The position numbers and the translations under genes were made by a program. This document shows, one piece after another, positions 16,414 through 27,274 of a stretch of 64,000 bases of DNA. The stretch's first letter is position 1, and the number at the start of each line of letters is the position of its first letter. The notes beneath the pieces are model-generated. The model made no database searches. It was given only the letters and a program-made list of their open reading frames with translations, and had not been told where the DNA came from. Source of the stretch: Amylibacter marinus (GTDB lineage Bacteria > Pseudomonadota > Alphaproteobacteria > Rhodobacterales > Rhodobacteraceae); the NCBI RefSeq assembly GCF_030160015.1, contig NZ_BSNN01000004.1, forward strand, positions 124,001-188,000, written 5' to 3'.

Positions 16414-17793
16414 TTAGATTTCCAGTGTGATAGAATCAGTGCGATGCGCCCAAAGATTTTTCAGCGTTGTCCCAAACGTGTGCAGTGCATTCTCGGATTT
16501 GATTGATATCAGCGCTTCCGATCTTTCCCCCAAGCCATTCAGAGAATGATCCCCGAGAAGTAAGTCTCTCTTGTTCAAATCTTCTCGCTTCAAGCGAATA
16601 CTTACCACCCGCTTATTATCAGAGACCTTCAAAACCTTTTCAACTGTTGCGGGCACCCAGACGGGCTTAGGAAGGCCTCCGGAGAGTTGCACCTGCACAG
16701 GTTGACCCTCGGCAATAGAGGGAAACTGTGCCAATGTTATACGGCTGGTCACTTCGAAATCGGTAGTCAAAGGGGCGATCTCTAGTACATAGGCCCCTGC
16801 TGCAACTTTACGACCAGATTCTTTGATGCGCATGCGCTGGACACGCCCAGATATCGACGCATAGATAAACTTGTCACGCAGAATATCCTCCATTCTAGTA
16901 AGTTCCGCTTGGGCAAGAACCATTTGGTCTGAAATCTCAGCTAACTCTGTGATGATCGCCTGCTGACGATCCATCTCAGATTGCTTCTGCTCAGCGATCA
17001 AATTCGCATAGTTCTGTTTAGCCTGCGTGGATTTTATCGAATTCTCTAGCACCTTTCTTAGCCCTGCCATCTCTTCGAATTCCTCGCGCAGGTCTGGAGA
17101 ATTTTCCAAGGCACCCAACTTTTCACGCATCAAAGCATCTGTTTGGGTCAGACGAGAGAAGAGCGCTGCGACATCTTGTGCCGATTTAAGTTTCGATTGA
17201 TCCAATGCTCTGGCCAGTTTGCGTTTCTCGAGCAAACTTTGGCAATCCGAAAGACCACGTTGCATTTCACTTACCTGTTGCAACCGCCCCATCACCGTTT
17301 TTAGCGACTGGTTCAAAACAAGAGTATCTTGCCCAATTTGCAATGCTCTTAAACATTGGGTTCGTAGCAGGTGTTTCGCCACTGTTTGACGAGCAGATCG
17401 TAATTCCTCCGCAACATCTTTGGTCTGCAAGGAAGCAAGTATTTGTCCTTCGCGGACAACTTCGCCTTCGGTTACAAGCACATCGTGAATAATGCCACCC
17501 CGCTTGTGCTGAACTGGGGTAGATTGTTCAATGGCCTGTAACACCCCTGGAACACGCAGCGTATGAGTAACCTGAATCGCTTGTAATGAGAGATACATTG
17601 CGGCAATTGAAACGAGCGCGGCAATAGAACCGATCCCCAACATAAAAACCGCAAAAATATGACGCTTTGCGATCGTTTTGAACCCCCTTGCCGATGCCAC
17701 CTGCGGGCTGGCTTTTGGCTTGGCGACCTGGCTTTTTTCAACCACTTCTTTGGAGGAGCGTTTCAATTTAGCCCCCTGCAAGAAGTTTTTCAT
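16414..17793 (-). CDS. HlyD-family membrane fusion protein (type I secretion-like)
   Basis: 459-residue periplasmic adaptor. One transmembrane helix (FAVFMLGIGSIAALVSIAAMY) follows a basic cytoplasmic N-terminus. A biotinyl-lipoyl-like half (KRGGIIHDVLVTEGEVVREG) is followed by long coiled coils (about 135-305), then the second lipoyl half (ISGRVQRMRIKESGRKV) and a C-terminal beta-barrel. This is the order found in HlyD/PrtE/LapC proteins, which bridge an inner-membrane ABC exporter and an outer-membrane TolC-type channel. I chose the ATG at 17793, inside the end of the ABC gene (26-base overlap); the longer reading lacks support. No TolC-like gene is in the window. Confidence 0.87.
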   Translation of the reverse strand: MKNFLQGAKLKRSSKEVVEKSQVAKPKASPQVASARGFKTIAKRHIFAVFMLGIGSIAALVSIAAMYLSLQAIQVTHTLRVPGVLQAIEQSTPVQHKRGGIIHDVLVTEGEVVREGQILASLQTKDVAEELRSARQTVAKHLLRTQCLRALQIGQDTLVLNQSLKTVMGRLQQVSEMQRGLSDCQSLLEKRKLARALDQSKLKSAQDVAALFSRLTQTDALMREKLGALENSPDLREEFEEMAGLRKVLENSIKSTQAKQNYANLIAEQKQSEMDRQQAIITELAEISDQMVLAQAELTRMEDILRDKFIYASISGRVQRMRIKESGRKVAAGAYVLEIAPLTTDFEVTSRITLAQFPSIAEGQPVQVQLSGGLPKPVWVPATVEKVLKVSDNKRVVSIRLKREDLNKRDLLLGDHSLNGLGERSEALISIKSENALHTFGTTLKNLWAHRTDSITLEI

Positions 17794-19723
17794 CAGAAGT
17801 AGATCGATCCTCGCTAAAGCGGACAGCACATTGGCGGTACCCCTCGCGCAGGGTTTGTTCGAAACCATCACTCTGAGATATTACACGATTGAAATCAGGA
17901 TTGTTTTTTGCATCCATCTGCTCGGCCCCCAAAACGTCACCACGATCATGCATCGTGATAAACACTTCATGAGGCCCTAGGCGCACATCAAACAGAATTT
18001 CATCGTTGTTGCCCATCACTTGGTCACGCGGGGTAAAAAACAACATATCCTGAGCCGTCTGTTTGACGCGCTGCTTAAGTTCCTCGTCCATTCCTTGCGG
18101 GAACTGAGCTTCGAGCCAAAGAGTTAGGCGGAAGGCTTCTCGCTTGGTGGGCATAAACGATACCCTGACCCATCGTTGATGGTGGCGTTGCAGAACCTCT
18201 TCCATCGGGCCACGATCGGTTACCTCACCACGTTCTAATTTCACCAGTTCGTCGGCAACAGACATCAGATACTCATCGTCTGTAGCCAGAACAACAATTT
18301 TTCCCTCTGTTTTTGCCCGTAGAATCAACGCCATTAGAGCAGAGCGAGAAGCCTTATCGAGATAGGTTTCTGGCTGATCTAACACCAAGATATCGCTGTC
18401 CATCCAGAATGCGCGGGCGAGCGAAGTAATTTGCCCCTGAGCTGCATAATTTTGATCAATACTGTCGTTCAAAAAGTCTTTCTCTCTGAAAACATCTTCA
18501 AACGGATCAAGCTTGCGCAGTAACTCAATCGCGGGCAAGGGTGTTGCTGTTGGGTCAAAGCAGGTTACATTTTCTACGACTGTACCCTCTAGGGCAATTG
18601 GTGGAATCGCCGAGTAACTAAGCGAATTCATCCGGCCATGATTGCGCCCCCAATTGCGATCTTTGTAGGTGATCTTTCCTTCACTAAATTGCCCAGTCGC
18701 AATGGCCCGTAGAATTTCCGATTTTCCCGATCCAGAGGGCCCAATCAACGCAAGGCATAGACCCTGAAATAGATCAGCAGAAAATGGTGCAAAGCCTTTG
18801 TCCTCGAGATCAACAATCGATAGCAAGGCCATGGCGTTTTCGTCCGTCTTCGATTTGCTATCGAGGGCCTGCCCGTTTTCGATAAGGGACATGAAAGACA
18901 GATCAGGCTTAGCCGGTTTCAATGCTTGAACTTGGTAGAAGCGAACAAATACCGCTGTAATGTATTGATTTAGGAATACCACAGCCAGCATAGTCCCAAG
19001 CGTGATAGCACCTGATATCTGTAACCATGCTGCAACTGCAATCGTTGCGATCGCAGAAGAAAATTGGATAAAGTTCAACCACGTCGTTTGAGCCACAGAT
19101 TGAAAATCAGGTTGCTCCTTTGACGCTATTTTTCCTTCGGCCGCTTGTTGCAGGTATGCTGGGCCTAGCCCCGCGGCATCTGCGATAATGGGATCCGCAT
19201 CCTGACCTTTGATCGTGCCATGGGTATTGGCCTGATGTGGCTTACGCAATCTCCAAACCAGATACAGTGTCGCCGCAACGCTAAAAACAATCAACGAGAT
19301 CAAGGGATGTAAGAACGCAAGTATCACGCCCCAGAACAAGGCAAAGCAACTGTCCTGATAGAGAACCAATCCACGTACATTTGTCAAATAGGTTTCTAAC
19401 GCACGCATTCTAAGCAGATCGATCAAGCAAACCGAGACCGCCGTCCCAACACCCAATGCCGCCAGCGACCAAAGAGATGCCGCAGATTCAGACGGGATAA
19501 GCCGATCAACAATCAAAAGAGCTATTCCTGGGATACCCAGCGCCAATAAGCTGGAAAAGAAGCCCAGAGCTCCGCTGATTGCACGCACCCAGACAGGAGG
19601 CGCATCAGTTGCTTTGCGCATAAATTGTTCATTCTCTTGAAGATACTTTTCCCAAGACCGACGCCAATCTGGTACCGACAAAAGGCCACTTATTGACGGA
19701 GCTGCTTCTGATTTATTGTTCAT
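17768..19723 (-). CDS. ABC exporter-like protein with degenerate ATPase and an RsbW-like C-terminal extension
   Basis: 651 residues. About 45-265 holds six membrane segments of the type I secretion exporter kind, with the first cytoplasmic loop much shorter than usual. Residues 300-510 form a nucleotide-binding domain in which only Walker A is intact (GPSGSGKS, 328-335). The Q-loop glutamine is missing (SAIPPIALEGT), the LSGGQ signature is replaced by AAQGQITSL, Walker B reads ILVLDQPE with glutamine at the catalytic glutamate (residue 450), and the switch histidine is replaced in VLATDDE. Residues 517-651 are an extra domain that by eye aligns with the RsbW-like kinase encoded at 23513-23971, ending in VFITMHDRGD (compare IEIFIKDSGD). 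Next to the HlyD-type gene, with which it probably forms a complex. Confidence 0.85.
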   Translation of the reverse strand: MNNKSEAAPSISGLLSVPDWRRSWEKYLQENEQFMRKATDAPPVWVRAISGALGFFSSLLALGIPGIALLIVDRLIPSESAASLWSLAALGVGTAVSVCLIDLLRMRALETYLTNVRGLVLYQDSCFALFWGVILAFLHPLISLIVFSVAATLYLVWRLRKPHQANTHGTIKGQDADPIIADAAGLGPAYLQQAAEGKIASKEQPDFQSVAQTTWLNFIQFSSAIATIAVAAWLQISGAITLGTMLAVVFLNQYITAVFVRFYQVQALKPAKPDLSFMSLIENGQALDSKSKTDENAMALLSIVDLEDKGFAPFSADLFQGLCLALIGPSGSGKSEILRAIATGQFSEGKITYKDRNWGRNHGRMNSLSYSAIPPIALEGTVVENVTCFDPTATPLPAIELLRKLDPFEDVFREKDFLNDSIDQNYAAQGQITSLARAFWMDSDILVLDQPETYLDKASRSALMALILRAKTEGKIVVLATDDEYLMSVADELVKLERGEVTDRGPMEEVLQRHHQRWVRVSFMPTKREAFRLTLWLEAQFPQGMDEELKQRVKQTAQDMLFFTPRDQVMGNNDEILFDVRLGPHEVFITMHDRGDVLGAEQMDAKNNPDFNRVISQSDGFEQTLREGYRQCAVRFSEDRSTSDEKLLAGG

Positions 19724-19780: not shown

Positions 19781-21553
19781 CTACTGCGCATTTTTCTGGC
19801 TCTCTGACTTCAAGACTTCGTTGATATAATCCGACAGGGTTACGAACTCTGGCTCTTCATCGGGTATTGGTTTCACGGTCGTTTCGACAGCTACTGGCTC
19901 TGCAATAGGTTGCACATCCGCTGTTCCCCCTTGAAGCTCCTGAAGCAGTTGTGACACCAAATCCGTTTGCGGGTCGGTTTTAGCGCTAGGCAGACTGCTA
20001 TCCACTGACACCACATTATCCGAGGGCGTTACCTCAGGGCGACCAAGCCTTTCCAGCAGGAGTTTTTCTAGCGGGCTCATTTCAACTTCTGCAACAGGTT
20101 GCGGAAGCGCCGTCGGTGTCACCGCCATCGACGGTAGCGTATTTTTAGAAGGCGCTAACCCACCCGAATTTTGCGCAGTTCGCGTCATCATCCAACGCAG
20201 ACTGCTCAGCTCAGTTTGATACTCGTGTCGCAGATCCTGCAACGCTGTTTCTAAAACGTATATACGTTTTTGCATCTCTAAAACCTCGTGCGTAGAAACC
20301 GCAGACATCGGTTGCGCTGCTTGCGAAAACTGTCCGCCACTGCCAAGAGCCTGCGCGTTTGATACTGTATTCTCAGGGATCGGAACCAACTTATCTGCCG
20401 CGCTAAACCCGCTGGGGATTGGTAGGCTGCGCCCCTGCGCCTGCTCAGCAAAGCTTTGCCCAAAGTCATCTGTGGTCTGCTCTGCTATTGCACCTGACTG
20501 GGCAGTCGCTAGATCCGCAGCGTTATTTTGGCTTTGCAAATTCGCCAACTGAGTTTGCAGGGCCAAAATCTGCTCTTGAACGGGGTCAATGGCAGATGCG
20601 TTCAAACCGCTTGCGCTAGGCACTGGTAATCCTGTATTTTGAGCGAACGCTCCTTGCGCCTGAATGGGGTTTTGCACTTGGAATCCATTAATATTAGATG
20701 TAGCAGCAAAACTTGGCTGTTGAAAAGCGGCTCCCTGTACACCAAACTGTGGGTTCTGCCCGTAGGGAATTTGCTGGAATTGAGCATTTACCTGTTGTTG
20801 TCCAGCATTTGTTTGCTGAGAAAATGTCGTTACTGCCTGTTGCGGACCGGTATTCGGACTGTTCCACAAATCAGGTTGTGTTAACCCACCAGCAGTTTGC
20901 TGCAACCCTTGGGCGGGAACCGGCCACCCCCGTGGGAAAACCCGCGAGTTCTGCCCCTGTGCGACCCAACGTAGATATGTAACGACCGCTGAAAACCCAG
21001 AAAGAGAAATCGTTTGAACCGTTTCGACCTGTCGCTTTACAATCAAATCTGCACTGCTGGCAAGCAGAGTTTCCAATCTTGCGTCCAGAGGCTCAAGGAT
21101 CGTCGGCGGAACGGGCAATTCACTCTTACGATCCGTTAGGAAGAAACTGTCCTCTGGGGTAATCCCTGGAAGGCGGATTTGAATTTGCCCCGCAGATGTA
21201 AGACCTATTTCGATACTTTCCTTTTTTGCCAAACAGGCGGTCGAACTTTCAGCACAAATCACCTCGAACACATCCTCATCTAATCTCGGACTAGAGCTAA
21301 ACCTTGCATAGCCGTCCGGATCAAAACGAAAATATACTTTATCGACAAATCCTTCTTGAAATGTTGGCCAGCCAAATGAGCCGCGGATAGCCTGCTCTGC
21401 CTCTCTAGCGCCGATAGCAAACAGAACGGATGTATCCAAAATTTGGGTGGTATTGCTGATCCCCTGCTGCTGCGCCGATTGCCCAGAAACCGTATTGGGT
21501 AATGCCACGATCGGAAGGATAAGCACCATCAAAGCTTTCGTTAAGTTCTTCAT
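19781..21553 (-). CDS. Secreted Q/N-rich protein of unknown function
   Basis: 590 residues with a cleavable signal peptide (MKNLTKALMVLILPIVALPNTVSGQ). Residues about 30-190 look like a folded domain (FGWPTFQEGFVDKVYFRFDP). About 215-360 is low complexity, extremely rich in Gln, Asn, Ala and Phe. A short coiled coil (EMQKRIYVLETALQDLRHEY, near residue 430) and a Pro/Val/Thr-rich acidic tail follow. No family recognised. Its start overlaps the stop of the DUF3131 gene by four bases (ATGA) and the ABC gene follows after 57 bases, so the product should act with the export machinery in the periplasm or outer membrane. Confidence 0.8.
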   Translation of the reverse strand: MKNLTKALMVLILPIVALPNTVSGQSAQQQGISNTTQILDTSVLFAIGAREAEQAIRGSFGWPTFQEGFVDKVYFRFDPDGYARFSSSPRLDEDVFEVICAESSTACLAKKESIEIGLTSAGQIQIRLPGITPEDSFFLTDRKSELPVPPTILEPLDARLETLLASSADLIVKRQVETVQTISLSGFSAVVTYLRWVAQGQNSRVFPRGWPVPAQGLQQTAGGLTQPDLWNSPNTGPQQAVTTFSQQTNAGQQQVNAQFQQIPYGQNPQFGVQGAAFQQPSFAATSNINGFQVQNPIQAQGAFAQNTGLPVPSASGLNASAIDPVQEQILALQTQLANLQSQNNAADLATAQSGAIAEQTTDDFGQSFAEQAQGRSLPIPSGFSAADKLVPIPENTVSNAQALGSGGQFSQAAQPMSAVSTHEVLEMQKRIYVLETALQDLRHEYQTELSSLRWMMTRTAQNSGGLAPSKNTLPSMAVTPTALPQPVAEVEMSPLEKLLLERLGRPEVTPSDNVVSVDSSLPSAKTDPQTDLVSQLLQELQGGTADVQPIAEPVAVETTVKPIPDEEPEFVTLSDYINEVLKSESQKNAQ

Positions 21554-23385
21554 TGTGTTTCCTCTAATTGTGCAGGGTGTCTATAGGCAGGTAACCAGTC
21601 TGCTTCTTGTGGCGGGTCGGGTAGATTTTTGCGAATCCGGATATCTCGATCGCGATACCGAGTGTACCAAACCTCTGAGCCGCCATTCCCAGGGGTTAGA
21701 ATCTTACCTTGAACCTTGTGAAGCAAAGACGCCAAAAGAATGCCGTTGTTGTTTGCAGTTTGGATCTCAATATGTCCGTTACCACCCTCATATAGCCCTT
21801 CGTAGAATCCACGCTCAGGGTCGAACAATTCGATCACAGCATCATATAGAATATCCGTATAGTAACTCTCCCATAGAGACCAAAGGCCGAAGGCCGCCTT
21901 TGTAGCGATTGCAGCATGATCAGGAGAATAATCTCCACGCGGGGTTACGGTATTCCAAGGATACCCGTCAGAGAAAATGGTGTCATAGGTGAAATAGGGA
22001 GGGCCCTTCACATTGTGTTCTGAGCGAGCGGTCATGAACCCTTCGCGCTCAAAACGGTTATGTTGTACCTGATAAATTCGATCTGCAAATTCTGCGCGCC
22101 AGCCATCCGAATGCAGGTGATCTGAGGTCACATCATCATGCGGCATATCCCAATCTAGCTCTAATCCATCTAAGAGATAACTTTCTGTTACTACATAATT
22201 TTGCGAGTGAAAAACTCGCGGATCGCGCCCATCATATGGAACCCGCACGTCAAAGATGTTCGTCGTAAGAAATGGTTCGGCGCGATGTGCAAAATACGGC
22301 TTAAATCCCCAAAGCGCAAACCCCTTGGCCGCATACTCTTCATATCCCAAACGTCCCTCTTGGGTATAAATTGTTTCTTTGGTTTCCTTATCGACCGCGG
22401 CTCCCCACATGATGCCTTCTTCGTCGACAACGTGCGTGTAATCCCATTTCAGCAACATATTATCGATTGTGTTCGCCAAATAAGGATAGCGATTGCGGCA
22501 GATGCGCATCCAAACCATAAATCGGCCAATATCTAGGGCAGAGAACCCAATTTCACCTGGTTTATTTGTATAGTCTACCTGAGCGCCGGTTTTCGTATGA
22601 TACACCTTGTTTGGCATTTCATTCCGGAACAACTTCAATCCCTTAATAGTAGTCAAAAGCTGGATCAAGCGTTTGTCGAATTCAGGTTTCTCAATTAGGC
22701 ACAGCTCATAGGCCGCGACCAAACCGCTAACATATGATGCTGTATCCCAGAGTGTTGTGGAGGGGTAGCTACCCACAGAATTAGCCAATCCTGTTGTTTC
22801 TTGAGTGAACTTCTCGAAGTAGCCCCAAGCAACTTTGGCTGCCAGCATTTCACGCTCATTTAACATACCGCGTCGCGCTTTGTAGCGGCGCACAAACCCA
22901 TTTGTTTCCGTATAACCAGGTTGAAAATCCGGCTCGTTTTCAGCAAGTTTTTCGAAGTAATCCTCTGGCATGTCACACATGCGTGGCGGCTTTACCGTTG
23001 CTTTGGCTCCAGTCTGAGTGCTTAGCGTTTGCGCAGGCAAAGAGCCCTTTAGCAGGTTTGGTAATTCGTGTTCTGCCGCATTCTTAAGATTTACCTGCGA
23101 TGCAGCACTTTTATCTGCCTGAAACTCTGTACCGTCTGGCAGGTCAGACGATGAAACCAAAGAATATTCAGGGTTGTTCCGCAAGAACTCAGATGCAATC
23201 CCATCGGTTTCCGCGCGACGTAGCGCAGCGGCATGCGCCAATTCCTGCTGTTGGCGAAGCTCTGCAGAATTGTGTGAAATTGTTTCACTAACCTTACTGC
23301 CAAGCGTTACAAGAACAGCGCCAGCCACACCCAAGAAGCAAATAACAAAGGCTCCGATTGCAATTTTTTCAATGTGCTGGGTCAT
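21550..23385 (-). CDS. Membrane-anchored DUF3131 protein (predicted alpha/alpha-toroid, glycan-related)
   Basis: 611 residues: an N-terminal transmembrane anchor (IGAFVICFLGVAGAVLVTLG), a variable linker to about residue 150, then a long DUF3131 domain. Recognised by TTLWDTASYVSGLVAAYELC, EMPNKVYHT, GFSALDIGRFMVWMRIC and the late PDHAAIATKAAFGLWSLW. DUF3131 is predicted to fold as an (alpha/alpha) toroid related to glucoamylase/beta-glucanase-like domains and occurs near exopolysaccharide genes. The periplasmic domain may bind or cut a glycan; activity is not demonstrable from sequence. First gene of the four-gene export cluster, preceded by a 127-base gap after the RsbW-like gene. Confidence 0.83.
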   Translation of the reverse strand: MTQHIEKIAIGAFVICFLGVAGAVLVTLGSKVSETISHNSAELRQQQELAHAAALRRAETDGIASEFLRNNPEYSLVSSSDLPDGTEFQADKSAASQVNLKNAAEHELPNLLKGSLPAQTLSTQTGAKATVKPPRMCDMPEDYFEKLAENEPDFQPGYTETNGFVRRYKARRGMLNEREMLAAKVAWGYFEKFTQETTGLANSVGSYPSTTLWDTASYVSGLVAAYELCLIEKPEFDKRLIQLLTTIKGLKLFRNEMPNKVYHTKTGAQVDYTNKPGEIGFSALDIGRFMVWMRICRNRYPYLANTIDNMLLKWDYTHVVDEEGIMWGAAVDKETKETIYTQEGRLGYEEYAAKGFALWGFKPYFAHRAEPFLTTNIFDVRVPYDGRDPRVFHSQNYVVTESYLLDGLELDWDMPHDDVTSDHLHSDGWRAEFADRIYQVQHNRFEREGFMTARSEHNVKGPPYFTYDTIFSDGYPWNTVTPRGDYSPDHAAIATKAAFGLWSLWESYYTDILYDAVIELFDPERGFYEGLYEGGNGHIEIQTANNNGILLASLLHKVQGKILTPGNGGSEVWYTRYRDRDIRIRKNLPDPPQEADWLPAYRHPAQLEETQ

Positions 23386-23512: not shown

Positions 23513-23971
23513 CTAATGATTGCTGTCGGCATTACTATTAACGGCAATGGACAACTGAAGACTGTTTTTCCCATCTGTATAACTGTAATAAATATCCTTG
23601 GTCAGAGCCTGAATCATCATCCATCCGAAACCACCTTCAGGCAGATCCTCTAGATCCAAAGTCAATGGATCCAATGGTTTCTTTTGAGGCACCCCAGGGA
23701 ATTGATCACCCGAATCCTTGATGAAAATTTCTATTGATGCTTCGGTTTGCTGAAGCTCAAGTGCGATATCCTTGTCTGGTTGATACTTGTAGGCGTGCTC
23801 AACAACATTGTTGAGCGCCTCAGCCAAGACGATTTCACAGTTTTGGACTGCATCCTCGTCTGGCACAGTTTTCCGAAGCCAAACAGCGGCCTCGGCAACG
23901 GTAGATGTAATGCGGCTCTGCTCACTTTTGAATTCAGAGCGGAAAACAGGTGGGGAAATACGAAAATTCAC
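23513..23971 (-). CDS. RsbW-like anti-sigma regulatory factor / serine kinase (HATPase_c_2)
   Basis: 152-residue GHKL-fold ATP-binding protein. N-box ALAEALNNVVEHAYK is seen as VLAEALNNVVEHAYK (residues 48-62), G1 box as KDSGDQFPG and G2 as EGGFGWMMI, so ATP binding should be intact. Proteins of this type phosphorylate a partner STAS protein and sequester a sigma factor or another target. The STAS partner is encoded five bases upstream. No sigma factor or PP2C phosphatase gene is nearby, so the output may be the export locus itself rather than transcription. Confidence 0.9.
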   Translation of the reverse strand: MNFRISPPVFRSEFKSEQSRITSTVAEAAVWLRKTVPDEDAVQNCEIVLAEALNNVVEHAYKYQPDKDIALELQQTEASIEIFIKDSGDQFPGVPQKKPLDPLTLDLEDLPEGGFGWMMIQALTKDIYYSYTDGKNSLQLSIAVNSNADSNH

Positions 23972-23976
23972 GTGGA

Positions 23977-24324
23977 TTAACCTGCCATATCTTGATCGCT
24001 GGCCAGCGCGCTAGCGGCATCCACCGCGATACTAAACACGCTGTCCATTCTCGTAAGTTTAAACACTTTATCTACGGTTGGCGTGAGACCACAAATTTCA
24101 AATGTTTTGTCGGCCCCCATATATTTCATATGTGCAACCACTGCACCTAGGCCAGACGAATCCATGAAATCGACCTGAGACATATCCAAGATCATATGCT
24201 CGGTTCCATCGTCGACCAATTCTTTCAATGCGGATTTAAATCGCACCGCAAGTGCGGCGTCCAAACGCGACTCCTGCAATGTCACCAACAGCTTTCCATC
24301 GTGGTTTGTCGTTTCAAAGTTCAT
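23977..24324 (-). CDS. STAS-domain anti-anti-sigma factor
   Basis: 115-residue single-domain STAS protein of the SpoIIAA/RsbV type. The segment VDFMDSSGLGAVVAHMK carries the conserved serine (about residue 56-57) that the partner kinase phosphorylates. Full length and normal fold pattern. Encoded three bases after the acyltransferase and five before the RsbW-like kinase, so the three are probably co-transcribed. In partner-switch systems the unphosphorylated STAS protein binds the kinase and frees its target. Confidence 0.92.
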   Translation of the reverse strand: MNFETTNHDGKLLVTLQESRLDAALAVRFKSALKELVDDGTEHMILDMSQVDFMDSSGLGAVVAHMKYMGADKTFEICGLTPTVDKVFKLTRMDSVFSIAVDAASALASDQDMAG

Positions 24325-24327
24325 TTC

Positions 24328-25485
24328 TCACTCCTTCAAGAGTTTACTTCTGTTTAAAAATTCGGGACGCTTGAACGCTGGCAAACGACCAAGTCCAACG
24401 GTCCAAGCCAACGAGCGCGTTTTGCCCAACATCCAGACAAACACCGCAGCACCAAGGATCGCTCCCCCAGTTTTAAGAGCAACAAATAAAGAGGGGCTTA
24501 ATTTCTGATGCCAAAGTGCTATTTCCAACAGGTCAAGGAAAATGGGATGCACAAGATAGATACCAAAACTATAGGGCGCCATTGTCGAAATCACGGGCGG
24601 CCAGTTCGCATTCATCGCGGCCATGCATATCCCAAATAGCGCCACAGGCATCAAAAAATCCGCCCAATAAGCGGGGGTAAAATTATATTGCCAGTTCCCG
24701 TGCAAAATAACGCGATGTGAATAAACCAGTTTCACCGTAAACAGCAGCAAAGCTAGATAAATCGAGGCCCAGAACAGCTGCCGCAAGGCCTGCTCAGAGG
24801 GTCTAGATTTTAAAAAGCCATAAAAACTGGCAGCGACTATTCCGTATCCCGCATAGGTGAACAGCTTAACCCCGCGCACCAGATATTCGAACCCCATCAT
24901 ATCTTTTAGGGTGCTCCAAATCCAGACATCCACCTCTCGCTTACAAAACAAACAAACCAAAATAATTGCACCTAACGCAGGCCGATCAACCGCTACTCGA
25001 TATAAGGGAAAAAACAAAACCAGCCCAAATAGTGTAGGCAGGAAATGCATGTGATACTGTACATTGCCTAGTAAAAAGTAGCTGGCCCAGCTACTGGGCT
25101 GGCTAAGCTCATGCCAAATCACGCCATCATAGGAAAAATGGCCCGCCTTGATGAGCCGGTAAAACGCGAAAAACACCACCCAAAAGGCAAATGGCACCAA
25201 CAATCTGCGCGCCTGTTCCTTGATCGTTGCGCCATAGCCGCGCTCGCGATTATCAAGCGACATAACCAACAGGAACAAAGAAATAATCAAAAACAGCTCT
25301 GTGCGTGCGGTATAGATCACAGCGCGAAACAGAACCGGGCCAACACGCTCTGCGATCTCAAATTCAGGAAATGGCTGACCTGCAGTGTCAGAACTGGCAT
25401 GCAAGCCAACCATCGAAACGCCCGCCATAAGCCGAAGACAATCCAGCCAAACCATTCTGGACGGTGCGTGTTTCATTTTGTTCAT
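24328..25485 (-). CDS. Acyltransferase family 3 membrane protein
   Basis: 385-residue integral membrane protein with about ten hydrophobic segments. The N-terminal RMVWLDCLRLMAGVSMVGLHAS carries the arginine and histidine typical of family 3 O-acyltransferases, which acetylate or succinylate sugars on exopolysaccharides, lipopolysaccharide or periplasmic glucans. I use the ATG at 25485, which has GGAGG at good spacing; an upstream reading to 25530 crosses the promoter. First gene of the acyltransferase-STAS-RsbW group, divergent from the OmpA-like gene. Co-localisation with a DUF3131 protein supports a role in glycan modification. Confidence 0.85.
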   Translation of the reverse strand: MNKMKHAPSRMVWLDCLRLMAGVSMVGLHASSDTAGQPFPEFEIAERVGPVLFRAVIYTARTELFLIISLFLLVMSLDNRERGYGATIKEQARRLLVPFAFWVVFFAFYRLIKAGHFSYDGVIWHELSQPSSWASYFLLGNVQYHMHFLPTLFGLVLFFPLYRVAVDRPALGAIILVCLFCKREVDVWIWSTLKDMMGFEYLVRGVKLFTYAGYGIVAASFYGFLKSRPSEQALRQLFWASIYLALLLFTVKLVYSHRVILHGNWQYNFTPAYWADFLMPVALFGICMAAMNANWPPVISTMAPYSFGIYLVHPIFLDLLEIALWHQKLSPSLFVALKTGGAILGAAVFVWMLGKTRSLAWTVGLGRLPAFKRPEFLNRSKLLKE

Positions 25486-25629
25486 GTAGACCTCCGACTT
25501 TTGTCTGTGGTCGCACAAAATTCCTACCAAAACCTTTTTCTCTAAAATTTTTCACACCCTGCAAGTGTAAACACATCGTTAGACACTCTGGGGTAACTCT
25601 AACAGGGCAACGAAACCAAAGGATGTATC

Positions 25630-26301
25630 ATGTATCGCCCAAGTATTATTTTTACGGCTATGGTGCTGGGTGCCACGCCATCCATGGCGCAGGTCCAAAC
25701 CGAGCTGCCCATTGATGCCAGCAACTGCGCCATCGCCAAGGTGTTAAATCTTGCCCCCCCGAAGGGGTGCCTGACCGTTCCATTGGGGCAAACTAAGGGA
25801 ATCGTCATTCGGTTAAATGGCAAATTGAAAAATAACGCCACCGCCCAAACCACCGAAACCATCATTGTAAAACCCCCATCAAAACAACCCAAAGTAGCGG
25901 TTCAAAAAGGTAGCGTAGACCATGTAGACCATAAGGCCGCCAAATCAGAGAACGGGTATTTCATTCATTTCGCCCTGAATTCCTTTGATCTGGAACCTGA
26001 ATACAAAGAGCATCTAACCAGATTATCAACGGTGCTCAGCTCCAGTGCGCTGGGCAGTGCCTGTTTGCGAATCACCGGACATACTGACAGCTCTGGTGCA
26101 CCCGAATACAATAAAAAACTCTCGCAAAAACGTGCGGTGATGGTGGCAACCTACCTTGCCGAGACGGGCAAAGTGGATCCTAAGCGTATACAAATCTCGG
26201 CCGCAGGAGAGGATGCGTTACTACCTGACATTCCACCAAGTGATGCACGCAATCGCCGTGTAGAATTTTTAACCAAGGACGCCACTGATGGATGCACCTA
26301 A
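25630..26301 (+). CDS. Secreted OmpA-family peptidoglycan-binding protein
   Basis: 223 residues: signal peptide ending SMAQ, about 75 residues of variable sequence, then an OmpA C-terminal domain from about residue 110 (FALNSFDLEPEYKEHL, ITGHTDSSGAPEYNKKLSQKRA, DARNRRVEF), including the Asp and Arg that grip diaminopimelate. No beta-barrel or lipobox is visible, so it is likely a periplasmic wall-binding protein. The next gene, a secreted caspase-like protein, starts 14 bases before this one ends, implying coupled translation and possibly a joint function at the cell wall. Confidence 0.88.
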   Translation: MYRPSIIFTAMVLGATPSMAQVQTELPIDASNCAIAKVLNLAPPKGCLTVPLGQTKGIVIRLNGKLKNNATAQTTETIIVKPPSKQPKVAVQKGSVDHVDHKAAKSENGYFIHFALNSFDLEPEYKEHLTRLSTVLSSSALGSACLRITGHTDSSGAPEYNKKLSQKRAVMVATYLAETGKVDPKRIQISAAGEDALLPDIPPSDARNRRVEFLTKDATDGCT

Positions 26302-27274
26302 CCCTCTGATTTGGCTTAGGGCCCTTTTCCTGACGCTGACCTTAGCGGTATCTACCACTGCGGGGCTGGCCCAAGAGGCACGCCTTGCGTTGGTGATTGG
26401 CAACGCCCAATACCAATCTCTACCCCAATTAAAGAACCCGCAGTATGATGCGGAAACTATCTCTGAAACCTTGGCCAGTTTGGGGTTCACGGTCTTGCTG
26501 GCGACAAACGTCAATCAAAAAGAATTGAAAACTGCCCTACGCGCATTTGAATTGCGCAGCCAGAAATCTGATGTCACCGCGGTGTATTTTTCTGGCCACG
26601 GCGCAGCGATCAATGGGCAGAACGTTCTGTTTGGTGTTGATTTCAATCCCGCAGAAATAGCGTCAGATAACACGCTAACCAGTGTAAAAGATATTCAAGC
26701 GGCCCAATCAACAAATAGCAAAATCAATATGATCTTCTTCGATGCCTGTAGAGAGCCGATTACAATTGAATCCGCAAATCGCAGCATACGATTTGATCCC
26801 TTGGCGCCCAGAATTCCACCAATTGGCACAATAATCTCATTTGCATCCACAACTGGTGCAGCCGCCTTTGATGGGACAGGGGGGCATAGCCTTTTCACTG
26901 GTGCGCTGTTGGACAACCTGCGCACCGAAAACACAGACATCGAGGTTGTTTTGCGCGCTGTCCGGCGTGATGTGATTGTAAATTCAGATGGCACCCAGAT
27001 TCCTCAAACGGCATCCGGGCTCGTATCAAATTTCTACATTAATCCCACCGAAGATGCCTACCTGAATGATGCGATCAACACTGGTGCTATACAAAGCTCG
27101 CTTCAGCAATCAGGGTTCAGAAGAAAACCGATTCTATCGGAAATATCGCATGGCTTTCAGGCACCGGTAGATGTACCGAAATCTCAGAAAATACGCGCTG
27201 AATTAATAGCCGAAATCTGCGAACGCCTGGCTGATCCTCTTCCGGCGGCCTGTCTGAAGGATGGACAACCTTAA
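26288..27274 (+). CDS. Secreted caspase-family (peptidase C14, metacaspase-like) protein
   Basis: 328 residues with a signal peptide (LFLTLTLAVSTTAGLAQ) followed by a p20-type caspase fold: ARLALVIGNAQYQSLPQLKNP, the catalytic histidine in YFSGHGA (residue 104) and the catalytic cysteine in FFDACREP (residue 154). Both residues are present, so peptidase activity is plausible; metacaspase-like enzymes usually prefer Arg or Lys before the cut site. The C-terminal ~90 residues have no recognised domain. A predicted periplasmic location is notable because caspase-like proteins are better known from the cytoplasm. Overlaps the OmpA-like gene by 14 bases. Confidence 0.9.
   Translation: MDAPNPLIWLRALFLTLTLAVSTTAGLAQEARLALVIGNAQYQSLPQLKNPQYDAETISETLASLGFTVLLATNVNQKELKTALRAFELRSQKSDVTAVYFSGHGAAINGQNVLFGVDFNPAEIASDNTLTSVKDIQAAQSTNSKINMIFFDACREPITIESANRSIRFDPLAPRIPPIGTIISFASTTGAAAFDGTGGHSLFTGALLDNLRTENTDIEVVLRAVRRDVIVNSDGTQIPQTASGLVSNFYINPTEDAYLNDAINTGAIQSSLQQSGFRRKPILSEISHGFQAPVDVPKSQKIRAELIAEICERLADPLPAACLKDGQP

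What the first reader, a model, noticed from the sequence alone, without database searches (positions are those of the whole stretch)
17771..18175. RsbW-like domain apparently fused to the C-terminus of the ABC protein
Residues 517-651 follow the ATPase domain and are absent from ordinary exporters. By eye they align with the 152-residue RsbW-like kinase of the same locus: a WL pair, then about 60 residues, then a strand ending in DRGD against DSGD (VFITMHDRGD and IEIFIKDSGD). The N-box asparagine is missing, so the domain would not bind ATP normally. A degenerate kinase domain on the exporter could be a docking site for the STAS protein, tying partner switching to export rather than to a sigma factor.
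Basis: partly seen in the sequence, partly recalled or inferred. Interest (0 to 1): 0.75.

Follow-up and report, generated by a model that had tools for sequence, protein, structure and literature searches.

The report
Dead kinase-like domain on an exporter
An ABC-exporter-like protein in a bacterial surface-sugar gene cluster carries, at its end, what looks like a broken copy of the kinase used in a well-known protein switch, which suggests that the switch may act directly on the surface machinery instead of on genes.

Summary
Residues about 513-651 of the ABC protein (17771-18187, minus strand) form a conserved domain that Pfam misses. A profile of 34 tails matches 31 RsbW-type kinases (Prob 74.6, P 2.7e-5; best decoy outside the ABC family P 0.057). 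A single-sequence AlphaFold2 model of the tail has SpoIIAB/RsbW/UsfX-complex chains at PDB ranks 1-15; a longer, poorer model did not reproduce this. The ATP site is gone: N-box Asn in 0 of 34 tails. The ABC ATPase is degenerate too: catalytic Glu and canonical H-loop His in 0 of 24 orthologs, but 10 of 10 in PrtD-like paralogs with related tails. The locus belongs to a DUF3131/cellulose-synthase-like polysaccharide system. A PP2C/STAS/RsbW switch, resembling RbaVWY of Rhodobacter capsulatus, lies beside related loci in 6 of 6 annotated plasmid records opened. A STAS domain is encoded in 21 of 21 checkable DUF3131-type tail loci, also where the kinase was not found. STAS docking on the tail is the leading mechanism (about 0.45). 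Binding is untested, the paralog loci have no STAS nearby, and the switch also accompanies loci without such an ABC.

The parts
17771..18187 (-). C-terminal RsbW/HATPase_c_2-type domain of the ABC protein (residues about 513-651), ATP site lost
   Evidence: hhalign; AF2 and Foldseek (weak replicate); motif counts
17768..19723 (-). ABC protein related to type I secretion ATPases; Walker A kept, catalytic Glu is Gln, no H-loop His
16414..17871 (-). HlyD-type adaptor (ORF start uncertain; the listed ORF overlaps the end of the ABC gene)
   Evidence: PF13437; TIGR01843 81.6 bits, below its cut-off of 208.65
19781..21553 (-). protein without a convincing family match; related ORF in all 23 fetched DUF3131-type loci ('OMl')
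21550..23385 (-). DUF3131 protein
   Evidence: PF11329 E 1.1e-110
23513..23971 (-). RsbW-type serine kinase with N-box and G2 box intact
   Evidence: PF13581; 12 of 12 aligned partners have both boxes
23977..24324 (-). STAS protein with the D-S-S-G motif (phospho-site recalled from SpoIIAA/RsbV)
   Evidence: PF01740; D-S-S-G invariant in 12 of 12
24328..25530 (-). acyltransferase 3, first gene of the row
   Evidence: PF01757
14788..16362 (-). pentapeptide-repeat-like protein behind the HlyD gene
   Evidence: weak PF13576 (23 bits, cut-off 27); relatives in 4 of 12 fetched genus loci
25630..27274 (+). divergent OmpA and caspase-like (Peptidase_C14) gene pair bordering the locus
   Evidence: PF00691, PF00656; in 11 of 12 fetched genus loci

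Best explanation
The tail is a catalytically dead RsbW/SpoIIAB-type domain on a degenerate type I secretion-like ABC protein. That protein belongs to a DUF3131/cellulose-synthase-like polysaccharide system that is accompanied by a partner switch (REC-PP2C phosphatase, STAS protein, RsbW kinase). Most likely the tail is a receptor for a STAS domain: when the phosphatase wins, unphosphorylated STAS leaves the kinase and binds the dead copy, switching the ABC/HlyD assembly directly; when the kinase wins, phospho-STAS cannot bind. In related genera the STAS domain is fused to a nucleotidyltransferase and lacks Ser at the phospho-site, so docking there would be constitutive and would tether that enzyme to the membrane complex. 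Supported here by sequence: fold, loss of the ATP site, place in the polysaccharide locus, STAS beside it. Inferred: binding, its dependence on phosphorylation, and any effect on transport. Rough odds: fold 0.9, non-catalytic 0.95, switch acts on this polysaccharide system 0.8, STAS binds the tail 0.45.
For: Profile match Prob 74.6, P 2.7e-5 over 102 columns; PDB ranks 1-15 all from anti-sigma kinase structures (chain identity and text); element order E-H-H-E-E-(H)-(H)-E. N-box Asn 0 of 34; G1 Asp kept in 13 of 13 window-genus tails. STAS gene in 12 of 12 checkable window-genus loci (L030 cut by a contig end) and STAS-nucleotidyltransferase next to the acyltransferase in 9 of 9 checkable other-genus loci, including G076 and G446, where no stand-alone STAS (E 0.01), RsbW (E 1e-8) or PP2C (E 1e-8) was found. 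STAS-RsbW lie inside the ABC operon in the window genus, but elsewhere in other genera and in ABC-less G412 and G395. The glycosyltransferase and second DUF3131 gene lie between REC-PP2C and Hpt in 6 of 6 ABC-bearing window-genus genomes examined, and intact there in 0 of 6 ABC-less genus members that have the PP2C. Literature: the targets of SypA and RbaV are unknown (PMC4517449, PMC8256260, PMC3999984; passages); the STAS protein MlaB binds an ABC ATPase (PMC7367683; passages).
Against: No binding was tested and no co-fold was possible. A related tail sits on PrtD-like exporters with no STAS or RsbW in the fetched stretches (10 of 10 loci). G076 and G446 keep both tailed ABCs without the kinase and phosphatase; only a fused STAS remains. 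The switch accompanies DUF3131 loci without a visible tailed ABC in 6 of 6 annotated plasmid records opened, so STAS must have another target there. In 8 of 8 other-genus genomes examined PP2C is not next to the glycosyltransferase, so that coupling is particular to the window genus. The longer AF2 fragment gave unrelated top hits, with anti-sigma kinases at ranks 7, 15, 32, 43 and 49 of the 50 rows shown. Foldseek E-values were 0.08-1.1, none below 0.001. The paralog tails alone do not match RsbW significantly (P 0.12, 0.054).
Confidence: 0.5

Rival explanations
1. The tail is a structural dimerisation or coupling domain. ABC exporters are dimers and SpoIIAB/RsbW-type domains form dimers (recalled), so two tails would clamp the two ATPase domains; the partner switch is irrelevant to it.
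For: A related tail is on PrtD-like exporters whose fetched loci hold no STAS or RsbW (10 of 10), and tails persist where kinase and phosphatase were not found. The C-terminal extension of MlaF also makes a dimer handshake (PMC7367683, passages).
Against: Does not explain why a STAS domain is encoded in 21 of 21 checkable DUF3131-type loci, with or without the kinase beside it.
Confidence: 0.3
2. The tail pairs with the RsbW kinase itself as a mixed dimer and holds it at the membrane, so the ABC protein tunes the switch rather than being tuned by it.
For: Same fold, and the kinase gene lies in the operon in 12 of 12 checkable window-genus loci.
Against: In 11 other-genus loci no kinase gene lies in the fetched stretch; it is elsewhere in nine of those genomes and was not found in two.
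Confidence: 0.1
3. The tail recognises the exported substrate or a chaperone; the likeness to RsbW is an ancient fold relationship without functional meaning.
For: All ten paralog loci read hold a relative of the RTX-repeat protein (50-66% identity; split in two frames in L061).
Against: The ABC of the DUF3131 locus is degenerate, and no RTX gene was recognised in the window locus.
Confidence: 0.12
4. The resemblance to RsbW is chance; the tail is an unrelated alpha/beta domain.
For: One usable AF2 model with pLDDT 56 and a weak replicate; Pfam HATPase_c_2 at E 0.082 in 1 of 32 tails only.
Against: Unguided profile match well ahead of the decoys, the reverse search also puts the tail slice first, and the Foldseek top 15 are all one family.
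Confidence: 0.08

Closest known systems
RsbW/SpoIIAB anti-sigma serine kinases (Pfam HATPase_c_2, PF13581)
   Same: Order of strands and helices in the model, profile match, D-x-G at the G1 position in the window genus
   Different: Fused to an ABC protein; N-box Asn, His and G2 box lost; below Pfam detection
RbaV/RbaW/RbaY of Rhodobacter capsulatus (PMC3999984; section 15 and passages)
   Same: STAS protein, RsbW-type kinase and REC-PP2C phosphatase, no sigma-factor gene near rbaVW; target of RbaV unidentified
   Different: In the window genus the STAS and kinase genes lie in the DUF3131/ABC operon and the phosphatase gene next to a glycosyltransferase; orthology was not tested with R. capsulatus sequences
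SypA/SypE of Vibrio fischeri (PMC4517449; passages)
   Same: STAS protein controlled by a serine kinase/phosphatase in a polysaccharide locus; an unknown downstream partner is proposed
   Different: No RsbW-type domain on an ABC protein in the passages I saw; kinase and phosphatase are one protein
MlaB-MlaF (PMC7367683; passages)
   Same: A STAS protein acts directly on an ABC ATPase that has a C-terminal extension
   Different: The extension is about 25 residues and not an RsbW-type domain; Mla phospholipid system
PrtD-type type I secretion ABC exporters (TIGR01842)
   Same: ABC domain, HlyD-type partner gene, related ATPase sequence
   Different: Window protein scores 82 bits against a cut-off of 510; catalytic Glu and H-loop His lost
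ABC exporters with one degenerate nucleotide site (PMC7756269; search listing and start of abstract only)
   Same: Degenerate catalytic motifs
   Different: No intact second half was recognised in the locus; the tailed paralog was not found in G120 and G424, which have the degenerate protein

Membership tests
HATPase_c_2 / RsbW-SpoIIAB fold | Fold: strand, two helices, two strands, C-terminal helix and strand of the anti-sigma kinase domain | tested here: met
   elements and ranks 1-15; the longer fragment was weak, so moderate strength
HATPase_c_2 / RsbW-SpoIIAB fold | Score above the Pfam gathering cut-off | tested here: not met
   No match for the window tail; 1 of 32 tails at E 0.082
Active RsbW-type serine kinase | N-box Asn and His | tested here: not met
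   Asn 0 of 34, His 0 of 34 at the aligned columns
Active RsbW-type serine kinase | G2 box / ATP lid (G-x-G) | tested here: not met
   0 of 34 tails match the G2 pattern, 12 of 12 partners do
Partner switch (RsbVW type) | STAS protein with the D-S-S-G phospho-site motif | tested here: met
   Invariant in 12 of 12; phosphorylation itself not tested
Partner switch (RsbVW type) | Kinase with intact ATP motifs | tested here: met
   12 of 12
Partner switch (RsbVW type) | PP2C phosphatase | tested here: met
   One REC-SpoIIE protein in G000, about 54 kb beyond the window
Partner switch (RsbVW type) | Sigma factor as the released partner | not tested
   No dedicated search; none recognised among the genes read beside the switch
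PrtD-type type I secretion ABC exporter | NCBIfam TIGR01842 cut-off | tested here: not met
   82 against 510 bits; the paralog L060 also stays below it (369 bits)
PrtD-type type I secretion ABC exporter | Catalytic Glu and H-loop His | tested here: not met
   Glu 0 of 24; His at the canonical column 0 of 24 (two have His one place later)
PrtD-type type I secretion ABC exporter | HlyD-type adaptor gene beside it | tested here: met
STAS-regulated ABC (MlaB-MlaF) | Physical STAS-ABC contact | not testable with these tools
   No co-folding available

The most novel reading that the evidence does not exclude
A dead copy of the partner-switch kinase, fused to degenerate polysaccharide-locus ABC proteins and to RTX exporters of the same cells, is the missing target of the STAS protein: one phospho-switch sets two surface-export machines directly, by decoy-kinase docking, with no change in transcription.
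Probability: 0.3. Interest if true: 0.85.

Novelty: new variant of a known kind. Interest (0 to 1): 0.62.

Why it matters
Several STAS proteins (SypA, RbaV) work through targets that the papers seen call unknown. A dead RsbW-type domain on a membrane protein of a polysaccharide locus is a concrete candidate target that ordinary binding assays can test. It would also be an ABC protein in which both nucleotide-using domains have been turned into non-catalytic parts, and a case of partner switching acting on surface machinery instead of transcription.

Tried and rejected
Pfam on the tail and HMM searches of PDB sequences with tail profiles gave nothing useful. The search for related loci in genome contigs found only two distant ABC proteins, 22-25% identical over the ATPase part. 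Profile comparison of the paralog tails alone with RsbW was not significant.

A heterodimer of the degenerate ABC with the intact tailed paralog was considered and rejected as obligatory: in G120 and G424 the paralog tail was not found. 'STAS, RsbW and PP2C always accompany the tail' was tested and fails for G076 and G446. Tail outside the family: 3 of 289 class genomes matched, two of the same family (one of them G000) and one 40-residue match at E 0.005 that I do not credit. In one search an eleventh genome (G558) has a 39-residue match that I do not credit either. Plasmids hold no match to the whole ABC at E 1e-15. Paper searches for an ABC-RsbW fusion or a dead RsbW receptor listed no such report; that library lacks most subscription journals.

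In one search the single-sequence rank test favours the tails (Mann-Whitney 1.6e-15 against decoys), but the 34 tails are related, so I do not use that number as a probability. Its decoy set was not clean: it held one RsbW protein, one protein that looks like a sensor kinase, and (in the reverse test) one tailed ABC. Single tails score low there (best 6.6 bits, E 0.73).

Full report
What is there. ORF 17768-19723 (-) encodes 651 aa with an ABC ATPase domain at 314-451 and nothing that Pfam recognises behind it. In the window the row reads acyltransferase, STAS, RsbW-type kinase, DUF3131, an unrecognised protein, ABC, HlyD-type adaptor, pentapeptide-like protein, bordered by divergent OmpA and caspase-like genes. 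The whole ABC is found in 14 of 33 genomes of the genus, the window's own included. Of the 13 others, 12 were fetched with neighbours (L026-L037; L023, cut by a contig end, was left out), and 11 of the 12 show STAS and RsbW in the same place; the twelfth (L030) is cut by its contig end inside DUF3131.

Is the tail RsbW-like? Unguided hhalign of 16 tails against 12 RsbW partners aligns WL to WL, helix to N-box helix and HDRGD to KDSGD, P 0.0099. With 32 tails P is 0.00082, and with 34 tails against 31 RsbW-type domains Prob 74.6, P 2.7e-5, 102 columns. Decoys were 88 slices of up to about 150 columns from 24 protein families of the loci, 8 of them from the ABC family itself (count); some of the other families are frames that may not be genes. 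Among the 80 others the best P is 0.057, and the RsbW profile beats all 80, and STAS, for the window-type tails and for all tails. Searched the other way, the RsbW profile puts the ABC-tail slice first among the 88 (P 2.4e-4). Against: the tails of the paralogs alone give P 0.12 and 0.054, and Pfam sees HATPase_c_2 in only 1 of 32 tails, at E 0.082.

Structure. A single-sequence AlphaFold2 model of the window tail has mean pLDDT 56.3 and pTM 0.52, with E7-11 H15-28 H35-50 E64-70 E74-81, two short helices and a last strand E119-123. Foldseek against 350,542 PDB chains gives 61 matches up to E 10, none below 0.001; ranks 1 to 15 are all chains from SpoIIAB, RsbV/RsbW or UsfX structures (E 0.078 to 1.1, probability up to 0.96), and rows 16 to 50, the rest of those shown, have probability 0.13 or less. 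1l0o_A, 1th8_A and 1tid_A are named as the anti-sigma factor, and 1thn and 6m36/6m37 share these or the RsbW sequence. For the other chains of the complexes I infer from chain length that the kinase is the one matched (RsbV has 103 residues and RsfB 124 there); 6m36_E, with 100 residues, is the least certain. A second model with 22 more N-terminal residues was poorer (pLDDT 52.2); its top hits are unrelated and anti-sigma kinases appear at ranks 7, 15, 32, 43 and 49 of the 50 rows shown. I read this as moderate support that agrees with the profile evidence.

The domain is dead. In 34 aligned tails the N-box Asn column holds L, F, V, I, T or A, never N; the His column never holds H; the N-box acidic residue is kept (20 E, 14 D); the G1 Asp is kept in 13 of 13 window-genus tails and lost in 10 of 10 paralogs; no tail matches the G2-box pattern, which 12 of 12 RsbW partners do.

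The ABC is degenerate too. In 24 of 24 proteins of this type (13 window-genus, 11 of other genera) the catalytic Glu after Walker B is replaced and the canonical H-loop His is missing (two have a His one place later), while Walker A keeps GK[S/T]. In 10 of 10 paralogs both residues are present (one is a truncated frame without Walker A). The window protein scores 82 bits against a cut-off of 510 for PrtD-type exporters.

The tail is not confined to this locus. A related tail sits on a PrtD-like exporter in the same genome (G000:C1), between an RTX-repeat protein and an HlyD-type gene, and on nine further paralogs read here (L061-L066 and L075; L178 and L179). All ten loci hold a relative of that RTX protein (50-66% identity; in L061 in two frames), and none shows a STAS or RsbW match among its ORFs. 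In the order, paralog tails are in 10 of 244 genomes (an eleventh, 39-residue match is not credited), and nine of these ten also have the DUF3131-locus tail; tails of either kind are in 12 of 390. Only a few genera are involved, so this association is not independent of descent.

The system around it. In other genera (11 loci: L038-L040, L067-L074) the degenerate ABC lies divergent to DUF3131; in nine of the eleven a glycosyltransferase 2 and a second DUF3131 gene are near, and in G230 and G553 they are not in the stretches fetched. In G000 these two genes lie about 100 kb from the ABC, with the glycosyltransferase cellulose-synthase-like (TIGR03030, 198 bits, below its cut-off). They lie between a REC-PP2C gene and an Hpt gene in 6 of 6 ABC-bearing window-genus genomes examined (G000, G120, G401, G421, G423, G424). 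Of eleven ABC-less genus members searched, six have the PP2C at E 1e-8. Four of these (G394, G395, G404, G412) have PP2C and Hpt side by side, one (G405) has glycosyltransferase fragments between them, and one (G418) has shorter glycosyltransferase and DUF3131 pieces beside PP2C. In 8 of 8 other-genus genomes examined no glycosyltransferase stands beside PP2C, and Hpt does in seven. The STAS-RsbW pair lies beside a thiolase-like gene (recognised by eye) in five of seven other-genus loci and in G412 of the window genus, but not visibly in L168, L172 or G395; in the ABC-bearing window-genus loci it is inside the ABC operon. So both halves of the switch have been brought next to this system in the window genus. 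A tblastn of the DUF3131 protein against plasmids matched 16 records; I opened seven. Six are annotated there (Pseudooceanicola algae, Paracoccus seriniphilus, Rhodobacteraceae SC52, Pantoea agglomerans, Pantoea sp. Nvir, Chimaeribacter arupi). All six carry a PP2C, a STAS and an ATP-binding protein beside DUF3131 and a glycosyltransferase, and none lists an ABC gene of this kind; that the ATP-binding protein is RsbW-like was checked by profile in three. The seventh record has no annotation in that stretch.

STAS and the tail. Of 12 other-genus genomes searched, 10 have a stand-alone STAS and an RsbW elsewhere; in G076 and G446 neither was found (E 0.01 and 1e-8), nor PP2C (1e-8), yet both tailed ABCs are there. 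But in nine of the eleven other-genus loci (all that are checkable) the gene next to the acyltransferase encodes a STAS domain fused to a nucleotidyltransferase (the latter poorly conserved in L218), G076 and G446 included. By eye, the phospho-site position there is R, R, R, F, E, F, N, T and F, so never Ser. In the window genus a stand-alone STAS is in 12 of 12 checkable loci and follows the acyltransferase in 11; in L031 no acyltransferase was found. This is the main argument for a STAS-tail contact; whether STAS follows the tail or merely the polysaccharide locus was not separated.

Mechanism. Shown by sequence: dead RsbW-type domain, degenerate ABC, neighbourhood. Inferred: unphosphorylated STAS docks on the tail and changes the ABC/HlyD assembly; the kinase prevents it; PP2C under Hpt/REC control restores it. 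Known parallels: RbaVWY, where no sigma factor bound RbaW in two-hybrid tests (PMC3999984: section 15 and passages), SypA (PMC4517449 passages; review PMC8256260 passages, which allows that unknown partners may include sigma factors) and MlaB-MlaF (PMC7367683 passages). That the window proteins are orthologs of RbaV, RbaW and RbaY is inferred from domain content and taxonomy of relatives, not from their sequences. That SpoIIAB/RsbW dimerise is recalled.

Verdict. Observation confirmed; interpretation partly supported; a domain architecture for which the searches named under Tried and rejected listed no report, and which makes an open question about partner switching testable.

Noticed in passing
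window 17768-19723; orthologs L026-L040, L067-L074: The ABC ATPase has lost the catalytic Glu and canonical H-loop His in 24 of 24 proteins but keeps Walker A: a conserved pseudo-ABC protein.
   Followed up: yes
L060:8923-10992 (G000:C1): PrtD-like exporter with intact motifs and a related tail, between an 814-aa RTX-repeat protein and an HlyD-type gene, in the window's own genome; RTX relatives in all ten paralog loci read.
   Followed up: partly
L180:3536-10141; L197-L201: Hpt, second DUF3131, cellulose-synthase-like glycosyltransferase, REC-PP2C and a peptidoglycan-binding-domain protein form a second block of the system, about 100 kb from the ABC operon in G000.
   Followed up: yes
L206:9112-10147; L207:4668-8688: In two genus members without the ABC, glycosyltransferase fragments or shortened pieces lie beside PP2C, as if the block were decaying.
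   Followed up: no
L073:2983-4479, L072, L069, L038, L040/L220, L214, L215, L218, L219: STAS domain fused to a nucleotidyltransferase, without Ser at the usual phospho-site, next to the acyltransferase gene in other genera.
   Followed up: partly
L222-L224, L226-L228: PP2C, STAS and an RsbW-like or ATP-binding protein beside DUF3131/glycosyltransferase loci also in Pantoea and Chimaeribacter, so this pairing crosses classes.
   Followed up: partly
L224:21508-25338 (SC52 plasmid): Two genes annotated as calcium-binding proteins lie next to a DUF3131 locus; possibly RTX-type, in line with the co-occurrence of RTX exporters and this locus.
   Followed up: no
window 25630-27274: OmpA plus caspase-like (Peptidase_C14) gene pair borders the operon divergently in 11 of 12 fetched window-genus loci; its role is unexplained.
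   Followed up: no
window 19781-21553: 590-aa protein with no convincing family match; relatives in all fetched DUF3131-type loci, often matching only over the N-terminal part.
   Followed up: no
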